Below, in pieces: positions 597 through 11,493 of a DNA stretch of 64,000 nt (within the stretch, counting starts at the first letter, position 1; each line of letters opens with the position of its first letter). Source of the DNA: Noviherbaspirillum sedimenti (GTDB lineage Bacteria > Pseudomonadota > Gammaproteobacteria > Burkholderiales > Burkholderiaceae_D). Below the pieces are notes generated by a model. That model saw nothing but the letters and a program-made list of their open reading frames with translations. It had not been told where the DNA came from and did no database searches. The DNA lies in the NCBI RefSeq assembly GCF_003590835.1, contig NZ_QYUQ01000002.1, forward strand, positions 2,542,001-2,606,000. Direction: 5' to 3'. The position numbers and the translations under genes are program-made.

Positions 597-2459
597 ATGC
601 CGCAATATCGCTCCCGCACCACTACTCATGGCCGCAACATGGCAGGCGCGCGCGCGCTCTGGCGTGCCACCGGCATGAAGGATGGTGACTTTGACAAGCC
701 GATCATTGCCGTGGTCAATTCTTTCACCCAGTTCGTCCCCGGCCATGTGCACCTCAAAGACCTCGGCCAGCTGGTCGCGCGCGAAATTGAAGCAGCCGGC
801 GGTGTTGCCAAGGAATTCAACACGATTGCCGTCGACGATGGCATCGCCATGGGCCATGGCGGCATGCTCTACTCGCTGCCGTCGCGCGACCTGATCGCCG
901 ATTCGGTCGAATACATGGTCAATGCGCATTGCGCCGATGCGATGGTGTGCATCTCCAATTGCGACAAAATCACCCCGGGCATGCTGATGGCGGCGTTCCG
1001 CCTCAACATCCCGGTCGTGTTCATTTCCGGCGGCCCCATGGAAGCCGGCAAGGTATTGAAGGTGGTCGACGGCGTGAAAAAAATCATCAAGCTGGATCTG
1101 GTCGATGCCATGATCAAGGCCGGCGACGACACCGTCAGCGATGCCGACGTCGCCGAGATCGAACGTTCGGCCTGCCCGACCTGCGGCTCCTGCTCCGGCA
1201 TGTTTACCGCCAACTCGATGAACTGCCTGACCGAAGCGCTGGGCCTGGCCTTGCCGGGCAATGGCACAATCCTCGCCACTCACGCCGACCGCAAGGCACT
1301 GTTCCTGCGCGCCGGCCGCCTGATCGTCGAACTCGCCAAGCGCTACTATGAACAGGACGACGCCTCGGTCCTGCCGCGCAACATCGCCACCAAGGCCGCA
1401 TTCGAAAACGCCATGGCCCTCGACGTCTCGATGGGCGGCTCTACCAACACCGTGCTGCACTTGCTCGCCGCCGCGCATGAAGCCGAAGTGCCCTTCACCA
1501 TGGCCGACATCGACCGCATTTCGCGCAAGGTGCCATGCCTGTGCAAGGTCGCGCCGATGACCGACAAGTACCATATCGAAGACGTGCATCGCGCCGGCGG
1601 CATCATCGGCATTCTGGGCGAACTGGCCCGCGCCGGCTTGCTCGACACCTCGCTGCCGACCATCCACAGCACATCGCTGGAAGACGCCATTGCCCGCAAC
1701 GACATCAAGCTCACGCAAGACCCTGCCGTGCAATCGTTGTTCAGCGCCGCACCGGGCGGCGTGCCGACGCAAGTCGCCTTCTCGCAAGCCAACCGTTTCG
1801 AATCGCTCGACACCGACCGCAGCACCGGCTGCATCCGCGACAAGGCGCATGCGTATTCGCAGGACGGCGGCCTGGCTGTCTTGTACGGCAACCTCGCGGA
1901 GAAAGGCTGCATCGTCAAGACCGCTGGCGTCGATGAAAGCATCCTGGTTTTCAGCGGCAAGGCCCGCGTATTTGAAAGCCAGGACGCCGCAGTCGAAGGC
2001 ATCCTCGGCGACACCGTGCACGCCGGCGATGTCGTCATCATCCGCTACGAAGGCCCCAAGGGCGGTCCCGGCATGCAGGAAATGCTGTACCCGACTTCGT
2101 ACATCAAATCCAAGGGACTGGGTAAACATTGCGCCCTGCTGACGGATGGCCGCTTCTCGGGCGGCTCTTCGGGGCTCGTGATCGGCCACGCCTCGCCGGA
2201 AGCGGCGGAAGGCGGCGCGCTCGGCCTGGTGGAAGAAGGCGACATGATCGACATCGACATCCCGCAACGCCGCATCAACCTGCGCATCAGCGATGCCGAT
2301 CTGGCCAAGCGGCGCGCCGCCATGGAAGCCAGGGGCGATGCCGCATGGAAGCCGGTGGATCGTGAGCGTTATGTGTCGCAGGCCTTGCAGGCGTATGCGG
2401 CATTGGCGACATCGGCGGATCGTGGTGCGGTGCGCGATCTGGCGCAGTTGAAGCGCTGA
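597..2459 (+). CDS. ilvD: Dihydroxy-acid dehydratase
   Basis: Dehydrates 2,3-dihydroxy-isovalerate and 2,3-dihydroxy-3-methylvalerate to the 2-keto acids of valine and isoleucine synthesis; a cytoplasmic Fe-S enzyme. The 620 residues match the usual length of about 616. Visible motifs: [11 protein letters not shown] with Cys122, [11 protein letters not shown] with Cys193/196/199 (cluster and substrate region), and [22 protein letters not shown] near the C-terminus. The start at 597 is preferred over the upstream frame opening at 411 because GGAAG sits 6 bases before it and family similarity begins there. It is monocistronic here, followed by a strong hairpin terminator that also borders the integron. 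Confidence 0.97.
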
Positions 2460-2490
2460 GGCGCTATAGCGTTAGCGCATAGGATAGTTT

Positions 2491-2519
2491 GGGGATGGCG
2501 GCCGGAGGTCGCCATCCCC
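2491..2519. terminator. ilvD terminator hairpin
   Basis: GGGGATGGCG and CGCCATCCCC form a perfect 10-bp stem with a 9-base loop, 31 bases after the ilvD stop. No long T-run follows on the plus strand. It may act in both directions, since the last integron cassette gene converges on it from the right. Confidence 0.65.
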
Positions 2520-2541
2520 CCATTGATGCTTTAGTCATGCT

Positions 2542-2964
2542 TCAGTCCTGAGGCAGAAACTGCGGATTCCATACCACTTCCCAGAGATGCTGGTCAGGAT
2601 CCTGGAAATAGCCGGCATAGCCGCCCCAAAATGTTTCCTGTGCCGGCTTCACGACAAGGGCACCCGCGGCTTCCGCCTGTTTCATGACGGCGTCCACTTC
2701 CTCTTTCGAGGCGACGTTGTGGCCTAATGTAAACTCGGTTGCACTTGAAGCGCTTACCGGCAATCCGGAATCATGGGAAAGACTTTTGCGGGGCCAAAGC
2801 GCCAGTTTCAATCCGGCCTGCAAATCAAAGAACGCAACTGCGCCGTATTCAAATTCCTGACCAATAATTCCGTCAGTTTTTAGCCCGAGACCATCACGGT
2901 AAAACGCCACCGCCAGCTCGATGTCGTCCACTCCCAAGGTAATGACGGAAATACGTGGTTTCAT
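2542..2964 (-). CDS. VOC family (glyoxalase/bleomycin-resistance-like) cassette protein
   Basis: A 140-residue single-gene cassette product of the vicinal oxygen chelate fold. MKPRISVITLGVDDIELAVAF opens the first beta-alpha-beta-beta unit, and DPDQHLWEVVWNP near the C-terminus is the usual end of such proteins, with Glu as possible metal ligand. The ATG at 2964 is chosen because homology starts there; an upstream ATG at 2991 would lie inside the attC site. Last cassette of the array, next to ilvD, convergent with it. Substrate unknown; VOC proteins include lyases, dioxygenases and drug-binding resistance proteins. Confidence 0.85.
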   Translation of the reverse strand: MKPRISVITLGVDDIELAVAFYRDGLGLKTDGIIGQEFEYGAVAFFDLQAGLKLALWPRKSLSHDSGLPVSASSATEFTLGHNVASKEEVDAVMKQAEAAGALVVKPAQETFWGGYAGYFQDPDQHLWEVVWNPQFLPQD

Positions 2965-2982
2965 TTGGATACGCTCATTGCG

Positions 2983-3054
2983 GCATAACAACGCTGCAAA
3001 AAATTAACAACGCTGCAGAGAAATAAAGATTTTGACAAATTTCTTGCGTTGTAA
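2983..3054 (-). repeat. attC-like site between SgcJ-like and VOC cassettes
   Basis: In cassette orientation it runs from a TTACAAC box (3054-3048), one mismatch from RYYYAAC, to GTTATGC (2989-2983), one mismatch from GTTRRRY. The inner arms ACAACGCAAGAAATT and AATTTTTTGCAGCGTTG are imperfectly complementary. The 13-mer TGCAGCGTTGTTA occurs twice at the GTT end. It starts just after the stop of the upstream cassette gene and ends just before the next gene, as expected for attC. Confidence 0.65.
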
Positions 3055-3055
3055 T

Positions 3056-3466
3056 TCATTGATTCTTATCCGGCGCACACACAGGCGTCAACAGATTCGC
3101 GTCGCGGGCCAGCAACCATTTTCCTTGCTCCTTTTTGAAGACAGTCAGCGTGTGCCCGGCGCGCTTCATCGGCGGCGCGCCATCCGCTGGCGTCGCGATG
3201 ACGGTGAGTTCAGCCCACATGAACGCCCAGTCGCCCACCACCTTGATCTCCTGAATCGTGCTCGTGCCGTCGAAGCTGGGTGCGCCATGTTGCGCCTGTT
3301 GCCAGGCCGCCGCAGCGTACTCGCTCTTGCGCATGGGCGGCCTGCCCGCCACAAGGAAAATCACATCCTCCGCCATCAGCCCAAGGACCGTATCAACGTC
3401 GCCTGCTTTGGTGGCTGCCATCCACGTCGCAACAAGATTGCGGATTTGCTCTTCATCGGTTTGCAT
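3056..3466 (-). CDS. SgcJ/EcaC-like SnoaL-fold cassette protein
   Basis: A 136-residue protein of the NTF2/SnoaL superfamily. MQTDEEQIRNLVATWMAATKAGDVDTVLGLMAEDVIFL is the characteristic N-terminal helix pair and first strand; GHTLTVFKKEQGKWLLARDAN is the typical end. Family members are often annotated as DUF4440 or SgcJ/EcaC oxidoreductases, but a catalytic role is unproven here. The start at 3466 is fixed by a perfect AAGGAG five bases upstream. Flanked by attC-like sites on both sides, so it is an integron cassette. Confidence 0.85.
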   Translation of the reverse strand: MQTDEEQIRNLVATWMAATKAGDVDTVLGLMAEDVIFLVAGRPPMRKSEYAAAAWQQAQHGAPSFDGTSTIQEIKVVGDWAFMWAELTVIATPADGAPPMKRAGHTLTVFKKEQGKWLLARDANLLTPVCAPDKNQ

Positions 3467-3490
3467 GTTTTCTCCTTTGTTGTCGATGGT

Positions 3491-3550
3491 GGCCAACGCT
3501 AAAGATAAGGGGCGACCAGTTTGACTGGTGAAAGATGACTGCGTGTTTGA
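3491..3550 (-). repeat. attC-like site between DUF1304 and SgcJ-like cassettes
   Basis: Ends in cassette orientation with GTTGGCC (3497-3491), one mismatch from GTTRRRY; the other end CTCAAAC (3550-3544) is a weaker RYYYAAC. A perfect central hairpin ACCAGT-CAA-ACTGGT (3514-3528) and outer AACGC/GCGTGTT arms support the folded attC form. More degenerate than the other sites. Confidence 0.55.
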
Positions 3551-3570
3551 GATCGGGCATTCTCAGACAT

Positions 3571-3927
3571 TTAAGCGAGCCACATGAGAGCCATGCCAAT
3601 GGCTGCCGGGAGTGCTTGCACAAAGAAGATTTTTTTGCTGACGGTTGCCGCGCCATAGATGCCAGCAATGATCACGCAGCACAGGAAGAAGACTTTGATG
3701 TGCATGCCTGCGCTACCCATGCTTAGTCCCCAAATGAGCCCGGCTGCCAGGAAGCCGTTGTACAGGCCTTGGTTAGCCGCGAGTACCTTCGTTGACTGTG
3801 CTTGCTCTAGCGTGAGCCCAAAGGCTTTGCGACCTACGGACTTATCCCAGAGAAACATTTCCAGAACAAGGAAGTATATGTGTAGCAGGGCGACTAGAAC
3901 AACGATGATGTTTGCAGCGATTGTCAT
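3571..3927 (-). CDS. DUF1304 small membrane protein (cassette)
   Basis: 118 residues with about four hydrophobic helices: residues 4-25, a middle segment after NQGLYNGFLAAGLIWGL, HIKVFFLCCVIIAGIYG, and a C-terminal FFVQALPAAIGMALMW. The NQGLYNGFLA motif and the layout identify DUF1304. The function is unknown; it is expected in the inner membrane. AAGGAG five bases before ATG 3927 fixes the start. DUF1304 genes are frequent in cassette arrays, which agrees with the attC-like sites on either side. Confidence 0.88.
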   Translation of the reverse strand: MTIAANIIVVLVALLHIYFLVLEMFLWDKSVGRKAFGLTLEQAQSTKVLAANQGLYNGFLAAGLIWGLSMGSAGMHIKVFFLCCVIIAGIYGAATVSKKIFFVQALPAAIGMALMWLA

Positions 3928-3949
3928 TGTGGCTCCTTGCGCGGGAGAG

Positions 3950-4024
3950 GCCTAAAGAACGTGTCATCTGCCAGTGAGCGCGTGTGCTTCAGCGGCAGCT
4001 ATCTGTTGTGTGTCCGGGTTGAGC
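3950..4024 (-). repeat. attC-like site between DUF4260 and DUF1304 cassettes
   Basis: In cassette orientation it begins GCTCAAC (4024-4018), a perfect RYYYAAC. It ends near GTTCTTTAGGC (3960-3950), which looks like GTTAGGC interrupted by four extra bases. Its 5' arm (GGACACACAACA...AGCTGCCGCT) closely resembles the arm of the next site at 4426-4499, suggesting related attC lineages. Confidence 0.6.
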
Positions 4025-4030
4025 AAGGCC

Positions 4031-4411
4031 TTATGCATGTTTACCGATCCGTCCGAAATGGGTAAAACCAAATCCAGCTTGATATTTGAGGCCATAGCCA
4101 AGCATGCGATCAAATCCAATATGGGCACACCAAATCAAGCCGGCAGTTAGTAACAGTGGCATGGAGAGTAATAAGCCAGCAGTTAAGCAAGCAACTGCGC
4201 CGATATACGAGTGCGCAAAATTATAGGCGACCGCACCCACCCTTGGCCCCATCAGATAGCCTAAAAACGCAAGGTCAGGTACCAAGAAGAAAATTGCAAA
4301 TACACCCCAACCATTTCCGAACTTGGAATACGCAAGTAAGGCCGCAGCAAGGACGACCAACCCTTCAAGCCGAAGGATTACTCGGACACCACCTGTTACT
4401 TCACCGGACAT
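4031..4411 (-). CDS. DUF4260 membrane protein (cassette)
   Basis: 126 residues, mainly hydrophobic. RLEGLVVLAAALLAYSKFGNGWGVFAIFFLVPDLAFLGY, then GPRVGAVAYNFAHSY and HIGFDRMLGYGLKYQAGFGFTHFGRIG give the full DUF4260 pattern. Function unknown; presumably inner membrane. Two adjacent ATGs (4414 and 4411) follow GGGAG; the second has the better five-base spacing. The start lies only 15 bases inside the attC end at 4426, the normal tight packing of a gene cassette. Confidence 0.87.
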   Translation of the reverse strand: MSGEVTGGVRVILRLEGLVVLAAALLAYSKFGNGWGVFAIFFLVPDLAFLGYLMGPRVGAVAYNFAHSYIGAVACLTAGLLLSMPLLLTAGLIWCAHIGFDRMLGYGLKYQAGFGFTHFGRIGKHA

Positions 4412-4425
4412 CATTTCTCCCTTAT

Positions 4426-4499
4426 GCATAACGCCGAACTAACAGGCACACAACATGAGCCGCGAAGCGGCAGCTTTATGTGGCGTGTCCTGGTTGAGT
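4426..4499 (-). repeat. attC-like site bordering the IS1111-type insertion
   Basis: Bounded by GTTGAGT (4493-4499, perfect GTTRRRY on the plus strand) and GCATAAC (4426-4432, one mismatch). The centre is GCCGC-GAA-GCGGC (4459-4471), enclosed by ACATGA/TTATGT arms and further pairing, a strong single-strand hairpin. The IS110-family element begins within a few bases of the GTTGAGT box, so this attC was a target of that element. Confidence 0.75.
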
Positions 4500-5950
4500 G
4501 ATGGGATGGACTCCTCCCGTCTTTTTGCGCGATAGTAGGCGCACTGGTCGACGTGGGGATGGAGATCAGTCGTCAACGAAAGGAGTCCACCATGTATGCT
4601 ACTACTGTGGCCGTTGATCTGGCCAAATCCGTCTTTCAACTTGCCGTGGCCAATGCCCACTGGCGTGTCACCGAGCAACATCGGCTTACCCGCAGTCAAT
4701 TCGAAAAATGGTTCAGCAACCGCGCGGTATCCCTGGTCGTCATGGAAGCCTGCGGCTCGGCCCATCACTGGGGACGTTGGCTCAACAGCCTGGGCATCGA
4801 AGTCAAGCTGCTGCCGGCGGCTTACATCCGCGCCTACGTCAAGCGCAACAAGACCGATGCCGCCGATGCCTGCGCCCTGCTGGAAGCCGCCCGCTGCGCC
4901 GACATCATCCCCGTCAAGGTCAAATCCATCGAACAGCAAGCCTTGCAAGGCCTGCACCGGACCCGTTCGCTCTGGATGGGCACCCGCACCGCGCGCATCA
5001 ATGCCTTGCGCGGTTTCTGTCGGGAGTTCGGCATTTCCGTTGCGGCTGGGAGCCGCAACGGCCTGGAACAAATCAGTCGCGTCCTGGCCGATCCCTATTC
5101 CGCCGTGCCTGGCTTGATCCGTGGCACGATGACGCTGCTGGTGGAGGAAATCCGCCTGCTCGAAGTCCGCATTGCCCAGCTCGAACGTGAACTCACCGAA
5201 CTGGCCAAACAGTCGCCTGCGTGCACCACGCTCCTGTCGATTCCCGGCATCGGCTTGCTCACCGCGACCGCCATGGTGGCGGCCACCAGCGGCCAGGTCA
5301 GCCACTTCAAGGATGCGCGCCATTTCGCCAGCTGGTTTGGCCTCACGCCCAAGGAACATTCGTCCGGCAGCACGCGGCATCTCGGGCGCATTTCCAAACG
5401 CGGTGATCGTTACCTGCGCATGCTGCTCACCCATGGGGCGCGGTCGGTATTGAGAGCGGCCAGTGTGGCGCATGCGGCCGGACGACAGATCGACGGCTTG
5501 CGGCACTGGGCGTTGACGGTCCAGGGCCGCACCAACCACAACAAGGCAGCCTGCGCCCTGGCCAACAAGCTGGCGCGCATTTGCTATGCCGCGCTCAGGG
5601 ATGGCGAACCTTATACCGGCATGGTGACGCGCATGAACAAGAAAATCGAACGCACCGCGTATGCGATGCCGGCATGACCCGATTGCATGACCCTTGACCC
5701 ACCCGCCTTTGCGTAGAGATTGATCGCCCATCATGGCACACCGGGAAACACCCACACCGTTTGACGCCGATAACTTTTCCGGCAGCTTGCCTGCCGCTTG
5801 TAACGATTGGCGCAATGGTGACGCAGATTCCATGTCGGCACGGACCACAGCAGAGTCCACATCAGATGCCGGATATACGACTGCAGGCTTATCCCTCATG
5901 CCAGACCTATCGATCAGTTTCTTGATTTATGGGAGGAGTCCATATATGAC
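4500..5950 (+). mobile_element. IS110 family (IS1111-like) insertion sequence in an attC site
   Basis: About 1.45 kb with one transposase gene. Perfect 13-bp inverted repeats ATGGACTCCTCCC at 4506-4518 and 5931-5943 mark the ends; subterminal IRs are typical of the IS1111 subgroup. Left of the element is the attC box GTTGAGT (4493-4499); right of it is a second core box, GTTAAAC (5953-5959), which overlaps the stop of the next cassette gene. This matches the known IS1111-attC behaviour of targeting attC sites. Exact tips are uncertain by several bases because such elements make no clear target duplication. Confidence 0.85.
4592..5677 (+). CDS. IS110 family transposase (DEDD type)
   Basis: 361 residues. 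The N-terminal DEDD (RuvC-like) domain begins MYATTVAVDLAKSVFQLAVA with the first Asp, followed by VVMEACGSAHHWG and KRNKTDAADACALLEA. The C-terminal Transposase_20 domain carries LLSIPGIGLLTATAMVAATS and FASWFGLTPKEHSSG. Start at 4592 follows AAGGAG seven bases upstream; the frame is open to 4553. About 260 noncoding bases follow the stop up to the right IR, as in other IS1111 members where the long noncoding end holds recombination signals. Reading frame intact, so possibly active. Confidence 0.93.
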   Translation: MYATTVAVDLAKSVFQLAVANAHWRVTEQHRLTRSQFEKWFSNRAVSLVVMEACGSAHHWGRWLNSLGIEVKLLPAAYIRAYVKRNKTDAADACALLEAARCADIIPVKVKSIEQQALQGLHRTRSLWMGTRTARINALRGFCREFGISVAAGSRNGLEQISRVLADPYSAVPGLIRGTMTLLVEEIRLLEVRIAQLERELTELAKQSPACTTLLSIPGIGLLTATAMVAATSGQVSHFKDARHFASWFGLTPKEHSSGSTRHLGRISKRGDRYLRMLLTHGARSVLRAASVAHAAGRQIDGLRHWALTVQGRTNHNKAACALANKLARICYAALRDGEPYTGMVTRMNKKIERTAYAMPA

Positions 5951-5953
5951 AAG

Positions 5954-6232
5954 TTAAACATTTCGCCTCCATCCAATAGCCATTGCCACCATCGCCACAA
6001 TCCCTAAAAACATTGCGGCTCGCAAAGTGAACACTAGATCTACGCGTATATTTAAATCATGCGGAGTGGTGAATTCAGTGTAGGTCAGCCACCACCATAC
6101 CAGCGCAGCCAGGAAGAAGCACATCCTCGCCAAAATTCTATAGAACGGCAAAAATACAGATACAGATAAAGCTAGGGCGACCAGCCCACACCTGTATGGG
6201 TGCCAAGCGAACAATTCCGCAAATAGCTCCAT
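5954..6232 (-). CDS. Small membrane protein of unknown function (cassette)
   Basis: 92 residues from ATG 6232 (98 if the upstream ATG at 6250 is used); GGAGG lies ten bases before 6232. Three hydrophobic segments are visible: LVALALSVSVFLPFYRIL, MCFFLAALVWWWLTY and FTLRAAMFLGIVAMVAMAIGW. No family recognised. Its TAA stop overlaps the core box GTTTAAC, the first box of its attC, which now adjoins the IS1111-type element. Position and size fit an integron cassette gene. Confidence 0.65.
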   Translation of the reverse strand: MELFAELFAWHPYRCGLVALALSVSVFLPFYRILARMCFFLAALVWWWLTYTEFTTPHDLNIRVDLVFTLRAAMFLGIVAMVAMAIGWRRNV

Positions 6233-6272
6233 TACAGGAAAATCCTCCATTTTCTCTGGCCGAACCTTATAT

Positions 6273-6316
6273 GTTTAACGTTTTATTGGCGGGCGCCGCA
6301 GGCGTCACCGTTGAAT
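6273..6316 (-). repeat. Short attC-like site after the PaaI-like cassette
   Basis: Bounded by GTTTAAC (6273-6279) and GTTGAAT (6310-6316), both perfect core-site heptamers. The interior folds by CGCC-GCA-GGCG with further GGTG/CGCC pairing. At 44 bases it is shorter than typical attC sites (about 57 or more). The following gene begins about 40 bases further along. Confidence 0.6.
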
Positions 6317-6365
6317 TAAAAATTAAGTTTCAACGATCACAATACAAGCAACCTCCGTCTCAAAC

Positions 6366-6782
6366 TCAACCTTCCCGCCTGGGTGGAATGGAATACGTTC
6401 CCACGACGTGGGCTACCGCCTCACTGAAACCTTCCGAGTACAGCGCCACCTCGCCCACCGCGAGTGACCGCCCAACCTTCATGAGCTTGCACACGCCGAT
6501 GATGCGGCCGTGACCCGGTGGCTTGCGCAAGAAATTGATAGTTAAGCTCGTAGTCACTGCCAAGGGAACAATTCCGATTTCGCCGAGGATGGCCACATAC
6601 AACGCCACGTCCGCAACGGCCATGAGTACCGGGCCCGACACCGTGCCGCCTGGCCTCAACTCATCCGGCCCAACGTGATGTGACACTGTCGCTCCACAAT
6701 TGCCAACCACCTCGACTACGCATTTACTCTGCGGGAATTCCGCAGCCATAAACGCGACGACTTCTTCTTTACTCACTGCCAA
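6366..6782 (-). CDS. PaaI-like hotdog-fold thioesterase (cassette)
   Basis: 138 residues of the PaaI/YbgC hotdog superfamily. The fold core is visible as LRPGGTVSGPVLMAVADVALYVAIL (central helix region) followed by LAVTTSLTINFLRKPPGHGRIIGVCKLMKVGRSLAVGEVALY. Such proteins hydrolyse acyl-CoA thioesters; substrate not predictable. The start is a TTG at 6782 with AAGGAG seven bases upstream; a GTG two codons later has worse spacing. It lies 17 bases inside the attC end at 6799, so the RBS is part of the cassette. Confidence 0.82.
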   Translation of the reverse strand: MAVSKEEVVAFMAAEFPQSKCVVEVVGNCGATVSHHVGPDELRPGGTVSGPVLMAVADVALYVAILGEIGIVPLAVTTSLTINFLRKPPGHGRIIGVCKLMKVGRSLAVGEVALYSEGFSEAVAHVVGTYSIPPRREG

Positions 6783-7107
6783 AAGTTCGCTCCTTGAAAT
6801 TTAACGAATAGAGTTTATCTGCCGCTCCAGCAGTGCAAGCCAAGGGCTACTGCCGTGCAGCGGCAGATAAACGCTGTTGGACTGAACCGCCACACCGGCG
6901 GTGGTTATGGGGATTGTAAGCCGGGGAATGGCTGTTTTGGCAAGAATGTGGCGGTGGTGTTGCATCTTGACGGCAGTTCTGCAACAGCGCGGCGCCAGCA
7001 GCAATCGTCCATGCACCCTGAAACCCCTTTGCGGAAGGGGAATTTTGCCGCTGGCGGCGAACGCCGGCCTGGCCAGGGGATTCGCCATGCCTTGACTGCG
7101 TCGCCTC
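6783..7107. other. Gene-free stretch: attC site plus end of IS91-type unit
   Basis: Holds the attC at 6799-6882, the left inverted repeat of the IS91-type unit (6876-6904), and about 200 bases without a supported gene before the transposase stop at 7108. A CCCCTT/AAGGGG hairpin at 7024-7040 lies downstream of the transposase and could serve as a weak terminator. Confidence 0.6.
6799..6882 (-). repeat. attC site with long perfect stem, attI-proximal
   Basis: 84 bases from ATTTAAC (6799-6805) to GTTGGAC (6876-6882), both perfect core heptamers. Inside, GTTTATCTGCCGCT and AGCGGCAGATAAAC are perfectly complementary over 14 bases. A second stem GCAGT...ACTGC with GCC/GGC lies within. This is the best-formed attC of the array and implies a cassette between it and attI; that space is now occupied by the IS91-type unit. 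Confidence 0.8.
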
Positions 7108-8307
7108 TCATGCCGCACCCCTGGCTCCTGGCGGGCCGGTCGCCAGGCAGCGCAGAAATGGCAGGCGCACCGGCGCAATCACCTCGATCACCCGCAGTCG
7201 CCCGTGCGCACAATGCCGGCAACAGCCAATGTCGATGTGCGCCACCCGCAGCATGAAGGCATCCACGCTCTCGATGACCTGCGCATCCGGCGGCGGGACT
7301 GCTAGCGCAGCACGGCACTGTGCCAGCTTCGCCTGCTTGTGGCGGTTGGCCAGGATGCCGTAGTGCCGGATGCGCTTGAATCCCGACGGCAGCACATGTA
7401 GCAGGAAGCGGCCAATGAAGGCCTCCGCCGGCAAGCGCAGGGTGCGCTTCTTGCCGGGGCTGGCATTGTCGCGCACCCGGAATGTCACTTCCCCTTCGGC
7501 CAGGCTGGCCAGCCGGTCATTGGAAATGCCCACCCGGTGCGTATAGCGCGCCAGGTAATCCAGCACCTGGGCAGGCCCGCCCAGCGGCTGTTTCGCGTAC
7601 ACCACCCAGTCATGCCGGCGCAGGGCCAGCAGCAGCGTGCGCCAGCCGTGGGCGCTGTCCGTTTCCGCATGCCGCAGCTGTCCGTCGCCACGTGCCGCCT
7701 TGAGTGCATCGATGAACTTCTCGCGAAACACCTGCGACAGCGCCTTGACCGGAAACAGGAAGCCGCGGCGGCTAGCAATCCACTGACCCTGGCCAGTCAG
7801 CGCGCCGCTGGCCACCAGCGCATGCACATGCAAATGCCGCATCAGGTTCTGCGACCACGTATGCAGTACCAGAGAGAAGGCCAGGCTGCCGCCCAGCCAG
7901 CGCGGGTTGGCGCCGAACGCGACCAGCGTGCCGGATGCCGCCTCGAACAGCATGTCGGTGATCAGCCGGAAGTGGCTGCCGGCCAGGCCATTCAACGCAT
8001 GCGGCAGGGTAAAAACCAGGTGAGTGTACGGCACCGGCAGCAATTCGCGATGCCTTGCGGCGATCCATTGGTCCCTGGCCCGGCTCTGGCATGTCGGACA
8101 GTGACGGTTGCGACACGAGTGATACACATGCCGGGTGGCGCCGCAATCGGCACATTGCAGGACATGGCCGCCCAGCGCAGCGGTGCGGCATGACACGATG
8201 GCGCGCCAGGCCTTGGCCTGCGCAGGCGCAAGCGCATGCGCGGCAAGATAGGCGTTGCCGTGTTGACGGAAGATGTCGGCCAGTGCGATGCGGCCGCGGT
8301 GGGCCAC
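7108..8307 (-). CDS. IS91 family transposase (HUH/Y2 type)
   Basis: 399 residues; a rolling-circle transposase. The N-terminal zinc-binding domain shows CADCGATRHVYHSCRNRHCP followed by TCQ. The metal-binding HUH motif is in MRHLHVHALVASGAL, and the catalytic tyrosine region is YLARYTHRVGISNDR. Length is usual for IS91 members. It is immediately downstream of the recombinase gene on the same strand, so co-transcribed. Frame intact. Confidence 0.92.
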   Translation of the reverse strand: MAHRGRIALADIFRQHGNAYLAAHALAPAQAKAWRAIVSCRTAALGGHVLQCADCGATRHVYHSCRNRHCPTCQSRARDQWIAARHRELLPVPYTHLVFTLPHALNGLAGSHFRLITDMLFEAASGTLVAFGANPRWLGGSLAFSLVLHTWSQNLMRHLHVHALVASGALTGQGQWIASRRGFLFPVKALSQVFREKFIDALKAARGDGQLRHAETDSAHGWRTLLLALRRHDWVVYAKQPLGGPAQVLDYLARYTHRVGISNDRLASLAEGEVTFRVRDNASPGKKRTLRLPAEAFIGRFLLHVLPSGFKRIRHYGILANRHKQAKLAQCRAALAVPPPDAQVIESVDAFMLRVAHIDIGCCRHCAHGRLRVIEVIAPVRLPFLRCLATGPPGARGAA

Positions 8308-8310
8308 GCC

Positions 8311-9159
8311 CTAACGTTTGGACAAAAGCGACGACAGCAGGTCCAGCGGCGAATCGGTCCTGGCCACTTGCCCCTGCAGATGCAGGTAGCGGGCGGTGGT
8401 CGTGATCTTGTCATGCCCCATCAGCCGGCCGATGGTATGGATATCCACGCCGGCTTCGAGCAAGTGCGTTGCAAAGGCATGGCGCAGGCCATGGATGCCG
8501 CCGGCCTTGGTGACATGGGCGCGGCGCTTGGCCGCATAGTACATCTTCTGCACTTGCGAGATGCCGATGGGCTGACGGCCGTCCGTGCGGGGGAACAGCC
8601 AGTCCTGCGAAGGCCGGGTCCGCCAGTACTGCCGCAAGGTGTCCAGCAGCGCGGCTGACAGCAGCGTATAGCGATCCTTGCCGCCCTTGCCGTTGGCCAC
8701 ACGCAGCATCATGCGCTCGCTGTCGATGTCGCCAACCTTCAGCCGGCAGGTTTCCGTCACGCGCAAGCCGGCCGCATAGGTCGTCATCAGCAAGGCCCGA
8801 TGCCGCAGGTTGCTGCAGCCGTCCAGGATGCGATGGACTTCGTCGCGCGAGAGGATCTCGGGCAGTCTGGCTGGCGCCTTGCGGTTGGGAATCGTGAATT
8901 CAGCAGTAGGCTGCTTGAGCGTGATGTGAAACAGGAAGCGCAGCGCGCAGGCGGCCTGGTTGGTCGTCGACCAGCTCAGCTTGCGCGCCTCGATCAGGTG
9001 GAGCAGGTACTGCTGGACATCTTCCTGCGACAGTTGTTCGGGAGAACGGTTGTAATAGCCGGCAAGGCCGGCAACCGCGGCAATGTAGGCTTCCTGGGTA
9101 CGTGCCGCCAGGCCACGCAGCACCATGTCGGCCTGCATCTGCTTGCGCAGTGGGCTCAT
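8311..9159 (-). CDS. Tyrosine recombinase (XerD-like integrase) of the IS91-type unit
   Basis: 282 residues from ATG 9159, chosen for AAGGAA seven bases upstream; the frame is open to 9222. The N-terminal SAM-like domain (LAARTQEAYIAAVAGLAGYYNRSPEQLSQEDVQQYL) is followed by a catalytic domain with Arg in YAAGLRVTETCRLKVGDID, Lys in GKGGKDR, HGLRHAFATHLLEAG and HTIGRLMGHDKITTTARYLH carrying the nucleophilic Tyr. It lacks the extra helix region that marks IntI, so it is not a second integron integrase. Some IS91-type elements carry such a gene upstream of the transposase. Confidence 0.9.
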   Translation of the reverse strand: MSPLRKQMQADMVLRGLAARTQEAYIAAVAGLAGYYNRSPEQLSQEDVQQYLLHLIEARKLSWSTTNQAACALRFLFHITLKQPTAEFTIPNRKAPARLPEILSRDEVHRILDGCSNLRHRALLMTTYAAGLRVTETCRLKVGDIDSERMMLRVANGKGGKDRYTLLSAALLDTLRQYWRTRPSQDWLFPRTDGRQPIGISQVQKMYYAAKRRAHVTKAGGIHGLRHAFATHLLEAGVDIHTIGRLMGHDKITTTARYLHLQGQVARTDSPLDLLSSLLSKR

Positions 9160-9317
9160 GATCGTTTCCTTTTCTGTGCCGGGGAAATCCCCCGTTACAG
9201 CGTAGGAAACGCATGGCTTCAATGCCCGCTGCTGGTTGTGACTCTTTCCACCGCGCAGCGGTTTAGTTCAACTTTAATTAGGCGGACACCAGTGTCCGTT
9301 TTTTCTGGCGACCTGCC

Positions 9318-9324
9318 ACCTAAC
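9318..9324 (-). other. attI-like core site, copy A
   Basis: ACCTAAC, a perfect RYYYAAC; on the cassette strand GTTAGGT, a perfect GTTRRRY. It lies 150 bases from an identical heptamer in copy B and in the same local context. As the one nearer the array, it could be the functional junction with cassette 1, but this is inferred. Confidence 0.5.
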
Positions 9325-9376
9325 CCCGGCTGCCAATCTCGCGGAAACGCTGTATCCACCGGCTTTTGACGATGAA

Positions 9377-9392
9377 CTGCATAAAAACACAG
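9377..9392 (+). promoter_or_regulatory. Degenerate LexA box, copy A
   Basis: CTGC-ATAAAAAC-ACAG, one base off the CTGT-N8-ACAG palindrome. Same place in duplicated copy A as the perfect box in copy B. No intI start follows it, so it is probably a relic. Confidence 0.5.
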
Positions 9393-9467
9393 TCCTAATT
9401 AAACGCAAAAAACGTCACGAAATTAATTGCGCCGGAATCCGGCGTCCGCCTAATCTGGCCTGGCGCC

Positions 9468-9474
9468 ACCTAAC
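9468..9474 (-). other. attI-like core site, copy B (adjacent to intI)
   Basis: ACCTAAC, 82 bases upstream of the intI ATG, in the position expected for the attI recombination point. Perfect match to the core consensus on both readings (GTTAGGT on the minus strand). Confidence 0.6.
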
Positions 9475-9527
9475 CCGGGACTGCAAATTTGTGAAAACGC
9501 AGTATTCACCGGGGCTCTGACGATAGA

Positions 9528-9543
9528 CTGTACAAAAATACAG
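9528..9543 (+). promoter_or_regulatory. LexA (SOS) box of the integrase gene
   Basis: CTGTACAAAAATACAG is a perfect CTGT-N8-ACAG LexA palindrome ending 12 bases before the intI ATG. LexA repression of intI through a box at this place is established for other integrons. It predicts that the integrase is induced by DNA damage and single-stranded DNA. Confidence 0.85.
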
Positions 9544-9555
9544 TCCTAATTAACG

Positions 9556-10686
9556 ATGAAAAACGTCACAACTCCCGGAAATTCGACAGCGGACGCTAAA
9601 CCGCCAAAATTACTTGATTACTTGAAACGTTGTCTTCGTGACAAGCATTATAGCCTGCGAACGGAAGAAGTCTATGTTTATTGGGCACGCTGGTTTATCC
9701 GCTTTCACGGCTTGCGTCATCCGGCGGAAATGGGCGCGGCAGAGGTAAAGGCTTTTCTTTCCTACCTCGCCAACGAACGCCATGTGGCGGTGGCCACGCA
9801 TCGACAAGCCTTGTGCGCGTTGTTATTTCTCTACAAGGAAGTGCTCAGGGTGGATCTGCCGTGGCTGGACGATCTGCACCGCCCCACCAAGCCGCCACGG
9901 CGCCCGACGGTGCTGACACCGGCGGAAGCCGGAGCGATATTCCAGCGCATGCAGGGAACCCATGCGCTGATGGCGCAGCTGATGTACGGCACCGGCATGC
10001 GCCTGATGGAGTGCGTAAGTTTGCGGGTCAAGGATGTCGATTTTGCGCGGCGCGAAATCACCATTCGCCATGGCAAGGGCGGCAAGGATCGCATGACCGT
10101 TCTGCCACTCTCGCTGGCGGGCGCATTGCGCGAACAAATTTCTGCCGCCAGGATCTTGTATGACACTGACCGCGATGGGCAGCGCATGGGCGTCGCGCTG
10201 CCGGATGCGCTTGAGCTGAAATATCCGCGCGCCGGCATGCAGTGGGGTTGGTTCTGGGTGTTCCCGTCAGATCACGAATCGACCGATCCGCGTTCCGGTG
10301 TCATACGCCGCCATCACATGTACGAACAGACCTATCAGCGTGCCATCCTGCGCGCCACTGCCGAGACCAAAATCGCCAAGCGCGTTACTTCCCATACCTT
10401 CCGCCATTCATTTGCAACGCAATTGCTGGAAGCAGGCTATGACATCCGCACCGTGCAGGAATTACTCGGGCACTCGGACGTGTCCACCACGATGATCTAT
10501 ACACATGTACTCAATCGCGGCGGACGCGGTGTGCATTCGCCCATGGATGCATTGAATCAGGCGAAATTCATTGCCGAACAAGCCCTTGCCGAATATGCCT
10601 CAGTCCCTGCCGGACTCTTCGCCCAGCTCTCGGCCTCGCGCGGAAGCCGCATGCAGCGCCTTGACGATGGCCTGCTTTACGCCTGA
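9556..10686 (+). CDS. intI: Integron integrase IntI
   Basis: 376 residues; a tyrosine recombinase that inserts and excises gene cassettes at attI and attC. Similar to IntI1 along its length ([42 protein letters not shown]). It has the IntI-specific extra segment [20 protein letters not shown] followed by [17 protein letters not shown]. Catalytic residues are visible in [36 protein letters not shown] (Tyr). The usual end would be near HSPMDAL; here about 39 more residues follow, the last 29 codons running antisense over the proC 3' end. No clear Shine-Dalgarno precedes the ATG. Preceded by a perfect LexA box. Confidence 0.96.
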
Positions 10687-11424
10687 GGCTTCCATGCTGG
10701 TCAGCGCCGCGTAAGTGGTGCCGCCCTTGGATGTGACGCGCTCGCGCAGGACCGAGACCGGCTCGGTGGAATCGGCCGCCAGTTGCGAGGCGCCGATGAA
10801 AGTCGCGATCGCCAGTTGCGTGCCCTGCTCTATAGACAAGCCCATTTCCTGCGCTGCCTGCTGCATCGCCTCGATGAAATAGAAGACATACGCGGGGCCG
10901 CTGCCGGAGACCGCCGTTACCGGATCGATCAGCGCTTCGTCATCGAGCCAGACGGTCTGTCCGACCGCGCGCAGGATCGCATCGGCCGCTTCGCGCTGCG
11001 CTGCGGAGACACCCGGCAGCGCCACCGCGCCGGTGATGCCCTTGCCGATCAGCGCCGGTGTATTCGGCATGCTGCGCACAATGCCGCCATGCCCGCCCAG
11101 CCAGCGCGACAGGTCGGCGGCGCGGATGCCGGCGGCGATCGACAGCACCAGCTGCTTGCCGATGTGCGGCAGCAGTTGCGCCACGACTTCCTTCATTTGC
11201 TGCGGCTTGACTGCCAGTACGATCACGTCGGCTTGCGCCAGGACCGCGTCAGCGGTCTGCGCCGTGCTGACGCCGAACTGCTGCGCCAGCTTTTGCAGGG
11301 CGGCTGCATTCGGGTCCACCACATGGATGTTGGCGCCGGCGGTCAGCTTGCCGGCCAGGCCGCCGATCAGGGCGGTGGCCATGTTGCCGCCGCCGATGAA
11401 TGCGATTTTCAAATTATTTTGCAT
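10600..11424 (-). CDS. proC: Pyrroline-5-carboxylate reductase
   Basis: Reduces 1-pyrroline-5-carboxylate to proline with NAD(P)H, last step of proline synthesis. 274 residues from ATG 11424 ([22 protein letters not shown], Rossmann GxGxM-type motif at residues 10-15). The C-terminal signature [15 protein letters not shown] and [16 protein letters not shown] are present. The frame is open further upstream to 11493, without similarity. Downstream of yggS on the same strand, a common pairing. Its last 87 bases overlap the 3' end of intI in a convergent arrangement. Confidence 0.96.
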
Positions 11425-11493
11425 GTTGGTCTTTCTGTTGCGGTTGAATTCTGTTGGATTATTGTGCGGTTCTTGTGTGGTACTTACTCGCAC

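What the first reader, a model, noticed from the sequence alone, without database searches (positions are those of the whole stretch)
2520..10686. Compact chromosomal integron between ilvD and proC
Seen: an IntI1-like integrase with the IntI-specific extra segment, attI-like core sites, six attC-like inverted repeats and small one-gene units (PaaI, unknown membrane protein, DUF4260, DUF1304, SgcJ/EcaC, VOC), all on the strand opposite intI. Known: this is the geometry of integrons. Inference: an environmental, chromosomal integron with no resistance cassettes, whose products are mostly of unknown function.
Basis: partly seen in the sequence, partly recalled or inferred. Interest (0 to 1): 0.9.

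Follow-up and report, generated by a model that had tools for sequence, protein, structure and literature searches.

The report
One integrase, several scattered cassette arrays
The stretch is a real bacterial gene-capture device (an integron), and in this bacterium and close relatives copies of its docking site sit elsewhere on the chromosome with gene arrays but no integrase, as if one enzyme serves several arrays.

Summary
Details need correction. An attC model trained on another genome finds one strong and two weak sites, not six. proC, not ilvD, is the conserved neighbour (4 of 6 genomes of the genus).

The unexpected part lies outside the coordinates. The attI control region is a tandem double unit with 2-4 copies per genome in those four genomes, only one beside intI. 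In the single-contig relative, two intI-less copies head arrays holding 21 of 30 detected attC. In six intI-less arrays 26 of 37 cassette heads match their own attC perfectly, and two cassettes are identical between arrays. Best reading: one IntI serves several arrays in trans. Decayed intI fragments that all stop at one palindrome mark some satellite left ends. Everything is sequence evidence; trans activity is inferred.

The parts
9556..10686 (+). intI, integron integrase, 376 aa; its 3' end overlaps proC
   Evidence: TIGR02249 447.9 bits; 2a3v 281 bits; catalytic residues
9266..9581 (.). Tandem double attI / intI-promoter control region; attI core GTT at 9272-9270 (- strand)
   Evidence: Doubling shared with G001, G002, G003; 12 copies aligned
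9528..9543 (.). LexA-type (SOS) box CTGTACAAAAATACAG upstream of intI
   Evidence: Only perfect CTGT-N8-ACAG in the window; LexA meaning recalled, not tested
6805..9271 (-). IS91-type transposase plus tyrosine-recombinase unit bounded like a gene cassette, inserted at attI
   Evidence: Same ends at G000 786 kb and 144 kb and in G097, G172 x2, G014
8311..9222 (-). Tyrosine recombinase of the IS91-type unit, 303 aa
   Evidence: Phage_integrase 130.7 bits; best NCBIfam model XerA-type 175.8 bits, below cut-off 220
7108..8307 (-). IS91-family (Y2) transposase, 399 aa
   Evidence: NF033538 426.9 bits; Y2_Tnp 191.7 bits
6799..6882 (-). attC-like hairpin end of the IS91-type unit (R'' GTCCAAC, R' GTTAAAT)
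   Evidence: Fold -40.6 kcal/mol; head/R'' 6 of 7
6366..6782 (-). Cassette gene: hotdog (4HBT) thioesterase
   Evidence: PF03061 42.5 bits
6273..6328 (-). Eroded attC of the thioesterase cassette
   Evidence: R1 19.9 bits, filters off; head/R'' 5 of 7
5954..6250 (-). Cassette gene: 98-aa protein, no Pfam or NCBIfam match
5953..5959 (-). R'' half (GTTTAAC) of the attC split by the IS1111-type element
   Evidence: 7 of 7 complementary to the cassette head at 6279
4499..5946 (+). IS110/IS1111-type insertion sequence (ends +-1 bp) between R'' and L'' of an attC
   Evidence: 98% copy at the same place of another attC at 155 kb
4553..5677 (+). Transposase of that element
   Evidence: NF033542 305.8 bits
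4426..4498 (-). L''-to-R' part of the split attC
   Evidence: R1 hit 4426-4511, 83.2 bits; the last 13 positions are IS sequence
4031..4429 (-). Cassette gene: DUF4260 protein
   Evidence: PF14079 142.3 bits; cassette 89.7% identical to one in G003 array B1
3950..4036 (-). Eroded attC of the DUF4260 cassette
   Evidence: R1 20.1 bits; head/R'' 6 of 7
3571..3927 (-). Probable cassette gene: DUF1304 protein
   Evidence: PF06993 145.2 bits; no attC model hit
3056..3496 (-). Probable cassette gene: SgcJ/EcaC-type protein
   Evidence: TIGR02246 62 bits, cut-off 33.95; no attC model hit
2542..2991 (-). Probable last cassette gene: VOC protein
   Evidence: PF00903 62.5 bits; no attC model hit; head/R'' 6 of 7 by eye
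597..2459 (+). ilvD, distal flank in this genome only
10600..11493 (-). proC (longest ORF), conserved neighbour of intI

Best explanation
The window holds the integrase-bearing locus of a sedentary chromosomal integron that is split over several places of the chromosome. IntI is made here from a promoter with a LexA-type (SOS) box. Besides inserting cassettes at its own attI, IntI acts in trans on further attI copies elsewhere, so intI-less arrays keep capturing, losing and exchanging cassettes. The window's own array is the worn one: distal attC are eroded, an IS91-type/recombinase unit sits at its attI, and an IS1111-type element has split one attC. Satellites carry the double attI unit and at most a decayed 5' end of intI (about 60 codons); at three satellites and some further places the fragment stops at the same palindrome in intI codons 55-61. 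Shown by sequence: intI, attI, attC, attI copies without intI, cassette boundaries at those copies, identical cassettes in different arrays, intI fragments. Inferred: action in trans, SOS control, and how satellites arose.
For: intI complete. attI region in 12 places in 4 of 6 genus genomes; intI at E 1e-4 beside 4 of them, A0, B0, C0, D0; the only other hits, in A1 and A2, are recombinases of IS91-type units. 10 of 12 copies end at the same CCTAATTAAAGTT with varied first cassettes. Head/R'' complementarity 7 of 7 in 26 of 37 cassettes of six intI-less arrays, 5 of 8 in the intI array of G003 (1 in 256 by chance once GTT/AAC are fixed). Cassettes 100% identical between arrays of G003 over 463 bp (intI array and B2) and 408 bp (B1 and B2). 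attC outside the training genome at attI-headed arrays: 6 of 9 in G000. G003 is one contig with one intI at E 1e-60. Sites without array in relatives at two satellite loci.
Against: No experiment. 24 of the G003 sites trained the model, so its counts there are partly by construction; whole-genome counts scored only 150 candidates per genome. 11 of 37 cassettes lack perfect complementarity. A2 and C2 lack the attI core. Some attC clusters have no attI match: G002:C56 (8 hits; none in L143). G000 keeps a decayed second intI and G002 a second intI with a stop, which may have acted in the past. Identical cassettes could also move by homologous recombination. No sigma-70-like promoter was found at 9200-9600.
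Confidence: 0.7

Rival explanations
1. Ordinary decay: the satellites are inert relics of former complete integrons (CALINs) that lost intI; the window is one more sedentary integron and the arrays no longer exchange cassettes.
For: Decayed intI 5' ends at satellites, longest in the sister genus copy; A2 and C2 truncated at attI; PMC8618304 lists loss of intI among proposed CALIN origins (passages seen).
Against: Two cassettes 100% identical between arrays of G003 with cassette-exact ends; different first cassettes at satellites of the same locus, A1 and B2; LexA-type box kept as perfect CTGT-N8-ACAG in 10 of 12 copies.
Confidence: 0.2
2. The arrays were filled by another integrase (second intI lineages) or the duplication is of homologous-recombination origin only, without IntI acting at the copies.
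For: Decayed intI at 4.94 Mb in G000 and a second intI with a stop in G002; attI copies group by genome in part (A0-A1, B0-B2).
Against: The region upstream of the second G002 intI (L039) and of the G000 remnant (L041) gives no match to the attI profile at E 10; satellite attI match the proC-linked one.
Confidence: 0.06
3. The IS91-type unit spreads attI by rolling-circle capture of flanking DNA, in the manner of ISCR elements.
For: In G000 attI and the unit lie together at three loci.
Against: G001, G002 and G003 have satellite attI but no such recombinase at E 1e-80; A3 in G000 starts with another cassette.
Confidence: 0.04

Closest known systems
Sedentary chromosomal integron (as in Xanthomonas, PMC12444791, abstract and passages seen)
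   Same: Full-length intI next to a conserved housekeeping gene, attI, attC arrays of small genes, lineage-typical attC
   Different: Tandem double attI; 2-4 attI copies per genome with one intI. PMC3607928 (passages) states one attI per integron
CALIN, attC cluster lacking integrase (PMC9024848, PMC8618304, passages)
   Same: Satellite arrays are attC clusters without intI
   Different: They begin with an attI copy. IntegronFinder 2.0 does not detect attI outside class 1, so such heads would be missed
IS1111-type elements that target attC (ISKpn4, ISPst6; PMC11187229, passages)
   Same: IS110-family transposase, subterminal inverted repeats, non-coding stretch after the transposase, insertion inside attC at the same place in 2 of 2 full copies
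   Different: Guide RNA and its match to this attC not tested
ISShvi3, IS91-like element next to attC in Shewanella (PMC9229058, passages)
   Same: IS91-type element with an attC forming a cassette-like structure
   Different: Here with a tyrosine recombinase and the same ends in 7 copies from 4 genera; sequence relation to ISShvi3 not tested

Membership tests
Sedentary chromosomal integron | Integron integrase with the IntI-specific segment and catalytic residues | tested here: met
Sedentary chromosomal integron | attI next to intI | tested here: met
   Core conserved, varied first cassettes
Sedentary chromosomal integron | attC sites in the array | tested here: met
   One strong, two weak in the window; 30 detected in G003, mostly training sites
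Sedentary chromosomal integron | Vertical inheritance at a fixed locus | tested here: met
   Beside proC in G000-G003; in G004 intI and proC are on different contigs, G005 has no intI at E 1e-60
Sedentary chromosomal integron | Recombination activity of IntI | not testable with these tools
   needs an assay
CALIN (satellite arrays) | At least two attC without intI nearby | tested here: met
   B1 6 and B2 15 R1 hits, no intI at E 1e-4 in the 40- and 45-kb regions
IS1111-attC elements | IS110-type transposase, subterminal repeats, insertion at a fixed place in attC | tested here: met
   NF033542 305.8 bits; same place in two attC; repeats read from the sequence
IS1111-attC elements | Guide RNA matching the target | not tested
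   -
Gene cassette (IS91-type unit) | Own attC, head complementary to R'', homology ending at G^TT on both sides | tested here: inconclusive
   Ends coincide in 7 copies and complementarity is 6 of 7, but an IS91-type transposon targeting GTTA would leave the same junctions

The most novel reading that the evidence does not exclude
The truncated-intI / intI-promoter / attI segment is a discrete dispersing unit, an 'attI satellite', with a defined left end (a palindrome in intI codons 55-61, CTCCCAT-N4-ATGGGA read from the array side) that tends to follow T-rich sequence such as gene terminators. It seeds intI-less cassette arrays at new chromosomal places, so one SOS-controlled integrase runs a distributed, multi-array integron.
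Probability: 0.33. Interest if true: 0.82.

Novelty: new variant of a known kind. Interest (0 to 1): 0.66.

Why it matters
[quoted passage not shown] Here such clusters begin with an attI region and share identical cassettes with the integrase-bearing array. That allows a direct test of whether clusters taken for relics are working docking sites served in trans, which would change how cassette reservoirs are counted and how one integrase can move genes between chromosomal places.

Tried and rejected
Rfam at gathering thresholds found nothing in the window, so an own attC model was needed. Loose attC pattern scans gave many chance pairs and served only to pick training sites. The idea that IS91-type units spread attI was dropped because G003 has satellites without them. 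The idea that satellites end at intI codon 9 was dropped when longer decayed intI pieces appeared. No sigma-70-like promoter at 9200-9600. ilvD as ancestral neighbour was dropped. In one search the head of the first cassette in A1 was set 4 bases too early, so its 'match 1' is an artefact; the row is still counted among the 37. The attC are R1 hits plus a few placed by hand (A1 cassettes 1 and 2, A2 cassette 1, B1 cassette 5). Of 31 motif places only 30 had loci.

Literature: nine searches listed no paper whose title, abstract start or passages I saw reports several attI copies heading separate arrays with one intI. Most listed papers were not opened; passages or the outline of nine were seen. 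Subscription papers and bioRxiv are not in the library.
Full report
1. What is in the window. The window is G000:C2:2542001-2606000 of a 5.04-Mb genome. intI at 9556-10686 scores 447.9 bits with TIGR02249 (cut-off 265), aligns with the Vibrio integrase structure 2a3v at 281 bits and has R149, K177, H280, R283, H306 and Y315. Opposite it run six small genes: a hotdog thioesterase, a 98-aa protein without family, DUF4260, DUF1304, an SgcJ/EcaC-type protein and a VOC protein.

2. attI. Upstream of intI lie two tandem units of about 150 bp. Each carries a LexA-type box; the proximal one, at 9528, is the only perfect CTGT-N8-ACAG in the window. The distal unit ends at GCCTAATTAAA-GTT. The doubling is shared by G001, G002 and G003. 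Among family loci outside the genus, the five profile matches at E 1e-3 or better (L034, L044, L046, L047, L048) each cover at most 175 of 318 positions, that is one unit.

3. attC. A covariance model (R1) was built from 24 attC of G003 only. In the window it gives 4426-4511 at 83.2 bits, 3950-4036 at 20.1 bits and one background hit of 13.8 bits elsewhere; with filters off over 2300-9700 also 6273-6328 at 19.9 bits, the other five hits being 5.2-7.8 bits. The strong site is split: R'' is at 5959 and the insertion sequence 4499-5946 lies between R'' and L''. A second copy of this element, 98% identical, sits in the same place of another attC at 155 kb, as known for IS1111-type elements that target attC (PMC11187229, passages).

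4. The IS91-type unit. Homology between the window unit and those at G000 786 kb and 144 kb ends at the G^TT of the attC-like side in both; on the other side the 144-kb copy shares sequence from GTTGAAC only, while at 786 kb the attI region is shared as well. G097, G172 (two copies) and G014 have the same ends. It looks like a cassette, but a rolling-circle transposon targeting GTTA would leave the same junctions. A second, distant pair of the same kind (34% identical transposase) lies in another 2.43-kb cassette at G000 786 kb with 7 of 7 head/R'' complementarity.

5. Place. intI lies beside proC in G000, G001, G002 and G003. ilvD is at 0.93 Mb in G003 against 3.78 Mb for intI; in G001, G002 and G005 it has other downstream sequence without attC hits nearby, and in G004 the contig ends 191 bp beyond it. 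The ilvD junction is thus seen in G000 only. In Xanthomonas intI is mostly downstream of ilvD (PMC12444791, abstract and passages); I treat this as coincidence, untested.

6. Satellite attI. A DNA search of the six genus genomes with the attI region gives 12 places: G000 4, G001 3, G002 2, G003 3, none in G004 and G005. Four lie beside intI. Ten of 12 end at CCTAATTAAAGTT; A2 (G000 144 kb) and C2 (G001:C20) stop at the distal LexA-type box. First cassettes vary: B0, B1, B2 and C1 each have their own; A0 and A1 share the IS91-type unit; A3 and C0 begin with similar sequence, of which D0 and D1 show the first five bases before their contigs end. In A3 that first segment is 207 bp to the next core and carries CTGTATATTTATACAG; I saw no clear gene in it.

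7. Are the satellites working arrays? In G003 (one contig) R1 detects 30 attC: 7 in the intI array, 6 at 904-909 kb, 15 at 2.46-2.47 Mb, 2 elsewhere; 24 G003 sites trained the model and only 150 candidates per genome were scored. In G000, not used for training, it detects 9: 1 in the window, 1 at 786 kb, 3 at 144 kb, 1 at 4.135 Mb, 3 elsewhere. Cassette heads match R'' 7 of 7 in 26 of 37 cassettes of six intI-less arrays (A1 3 of 5, A2 2 of 5, A3 1 of 2, B1 6 of 7, B2 13 of 16, C1 1 of 2) and in 5 of 8 of the intI array B0. Two cassettes are 100% identical between G003 arrays over 463 and 408 bp. The window's DUF4260 cassette is 89.7% identical to one in G003's satellite B1. A tree of nine attI copies groups A0-A1 (90/97), B0-B2 (80/80) and A3-B1 (95/96) and no pair from the same locus (A1-B2, A3-D1); three of six inner branches are open, so it is weakly resolved.

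8. Where satellites sit. A1 and B2 are both beside ispF, A3 and D1 both beside yegD/phaM. At the clpB locus, where G000 has the A2 array, G002 has about 160 bp and G003 about 1.8 kb; at yegD/phaM G003 has no attI match. Satellite left sides carry decayed 5' ends of intI to different extents; A3 keeps most among the satellites of the genus, B2 is not significant (E 0.085). At A2, B1 and C2, and at 679 kb in G000, the left edge is the same sequence CTCCCAT(A/G)TTCATGGGATG, with differing flanks beyond. This 19-mer with up to 2 mismatches has 31 places in six genomes, 19 of them with at most one mismatch, against 0 for the pattern read backwards; four precede the same gene in four genomes. With the motif removed, a profile of intact intI genes matches the adjoining 181 nt in 5 of 30 loci at E below 1e-3, all in one register, and 0 of 30 on the other side; the three satellites A2, B1 and C2 are not among the five. 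The 5 nt before the motif are 45% T (67 of 150). So the motif is the edge of intI fragments at several places; most of the 31 show no other clear intI trace.

9. Sister genus. G161 has a second attI copy preceded by about 190 nt of decayed intI, with two weak R1 hits (28.6 and 17.3 bits) in the expected direction. This supports origin from complete platforms that lost most of intI. Of 15 genomes of that genus, 3 had any match to the G161 attI region and only G161 a substantial second copy.

10. Limits. All evidence is sequence comparison. G001 and G002 are drafts that break at or near attI. G002:C56 has an attC cluster without an attI match. Second intI lineages exist, decayed in G000 and with a stop in G002.

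11. Verdict. The parts are those of known chromosomal integrons; the whole, one intI with several attI-headed arrays, is unusual. I rate it a new variant of a known kind.

Noticed in passing
window 10600-10686: intI and proC overlap tail to tail by 87 bp; the same overlap (about 81 bp) is seen in G002 but not in G001 or G003 within the aligned part.
   Followed up: partly
L042 9385-11375 (G000 144-kb array): A group II intron (Rfam RF02001, RF01998, RF02005) with a reverse-transcriptase ORF sits in the A2 satellite array.
   Followed up: partly
L043 7614-10053 (G000 786-kb array): A second, distant IS91-type transposase plus recombinase pair lies in a 2.43-kb cassette with 7 of 7 head/R'' complementarity.
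   Followed up: partly
G003 arrays B0 and B2, G000 array A2, G001:C23: A 458-bp cassette without a Pfam-matching ORF recurs: identical in two G003 arrays, 73% in G000, 84% in G001; perhaps a gene-less promoter cassette.
   Followed up: no
G000 array A3, first 207 bp after attI: Short first segment with a perfect LexA-type palindrome, similar to the start after attI in G001 and perhaps G002.
   Followed up: partly
L041 (G000 4.94 Mb): Decayed intI of another lineage (about 160 aa, 49-50% identity) with an attC of 75 bits and a 39-bp piece of the IS1111-type end nearby.
   Followed up: partly
L143 (G002:C56): Eight attC hits in a cluster without attI or profile match at its head.
   Followed up: no
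L118/L127 (A3 and D1): At both yegD/phaM satellites phaM points away from attI, so the former intI promoter might drive phaM; read from positions, untested.
   Followed up: no
window 2491-2519: Perfect hairpin between the VOC gene and ilvD: ilvD terminator or remnant of the last attC.
   Followed up: no
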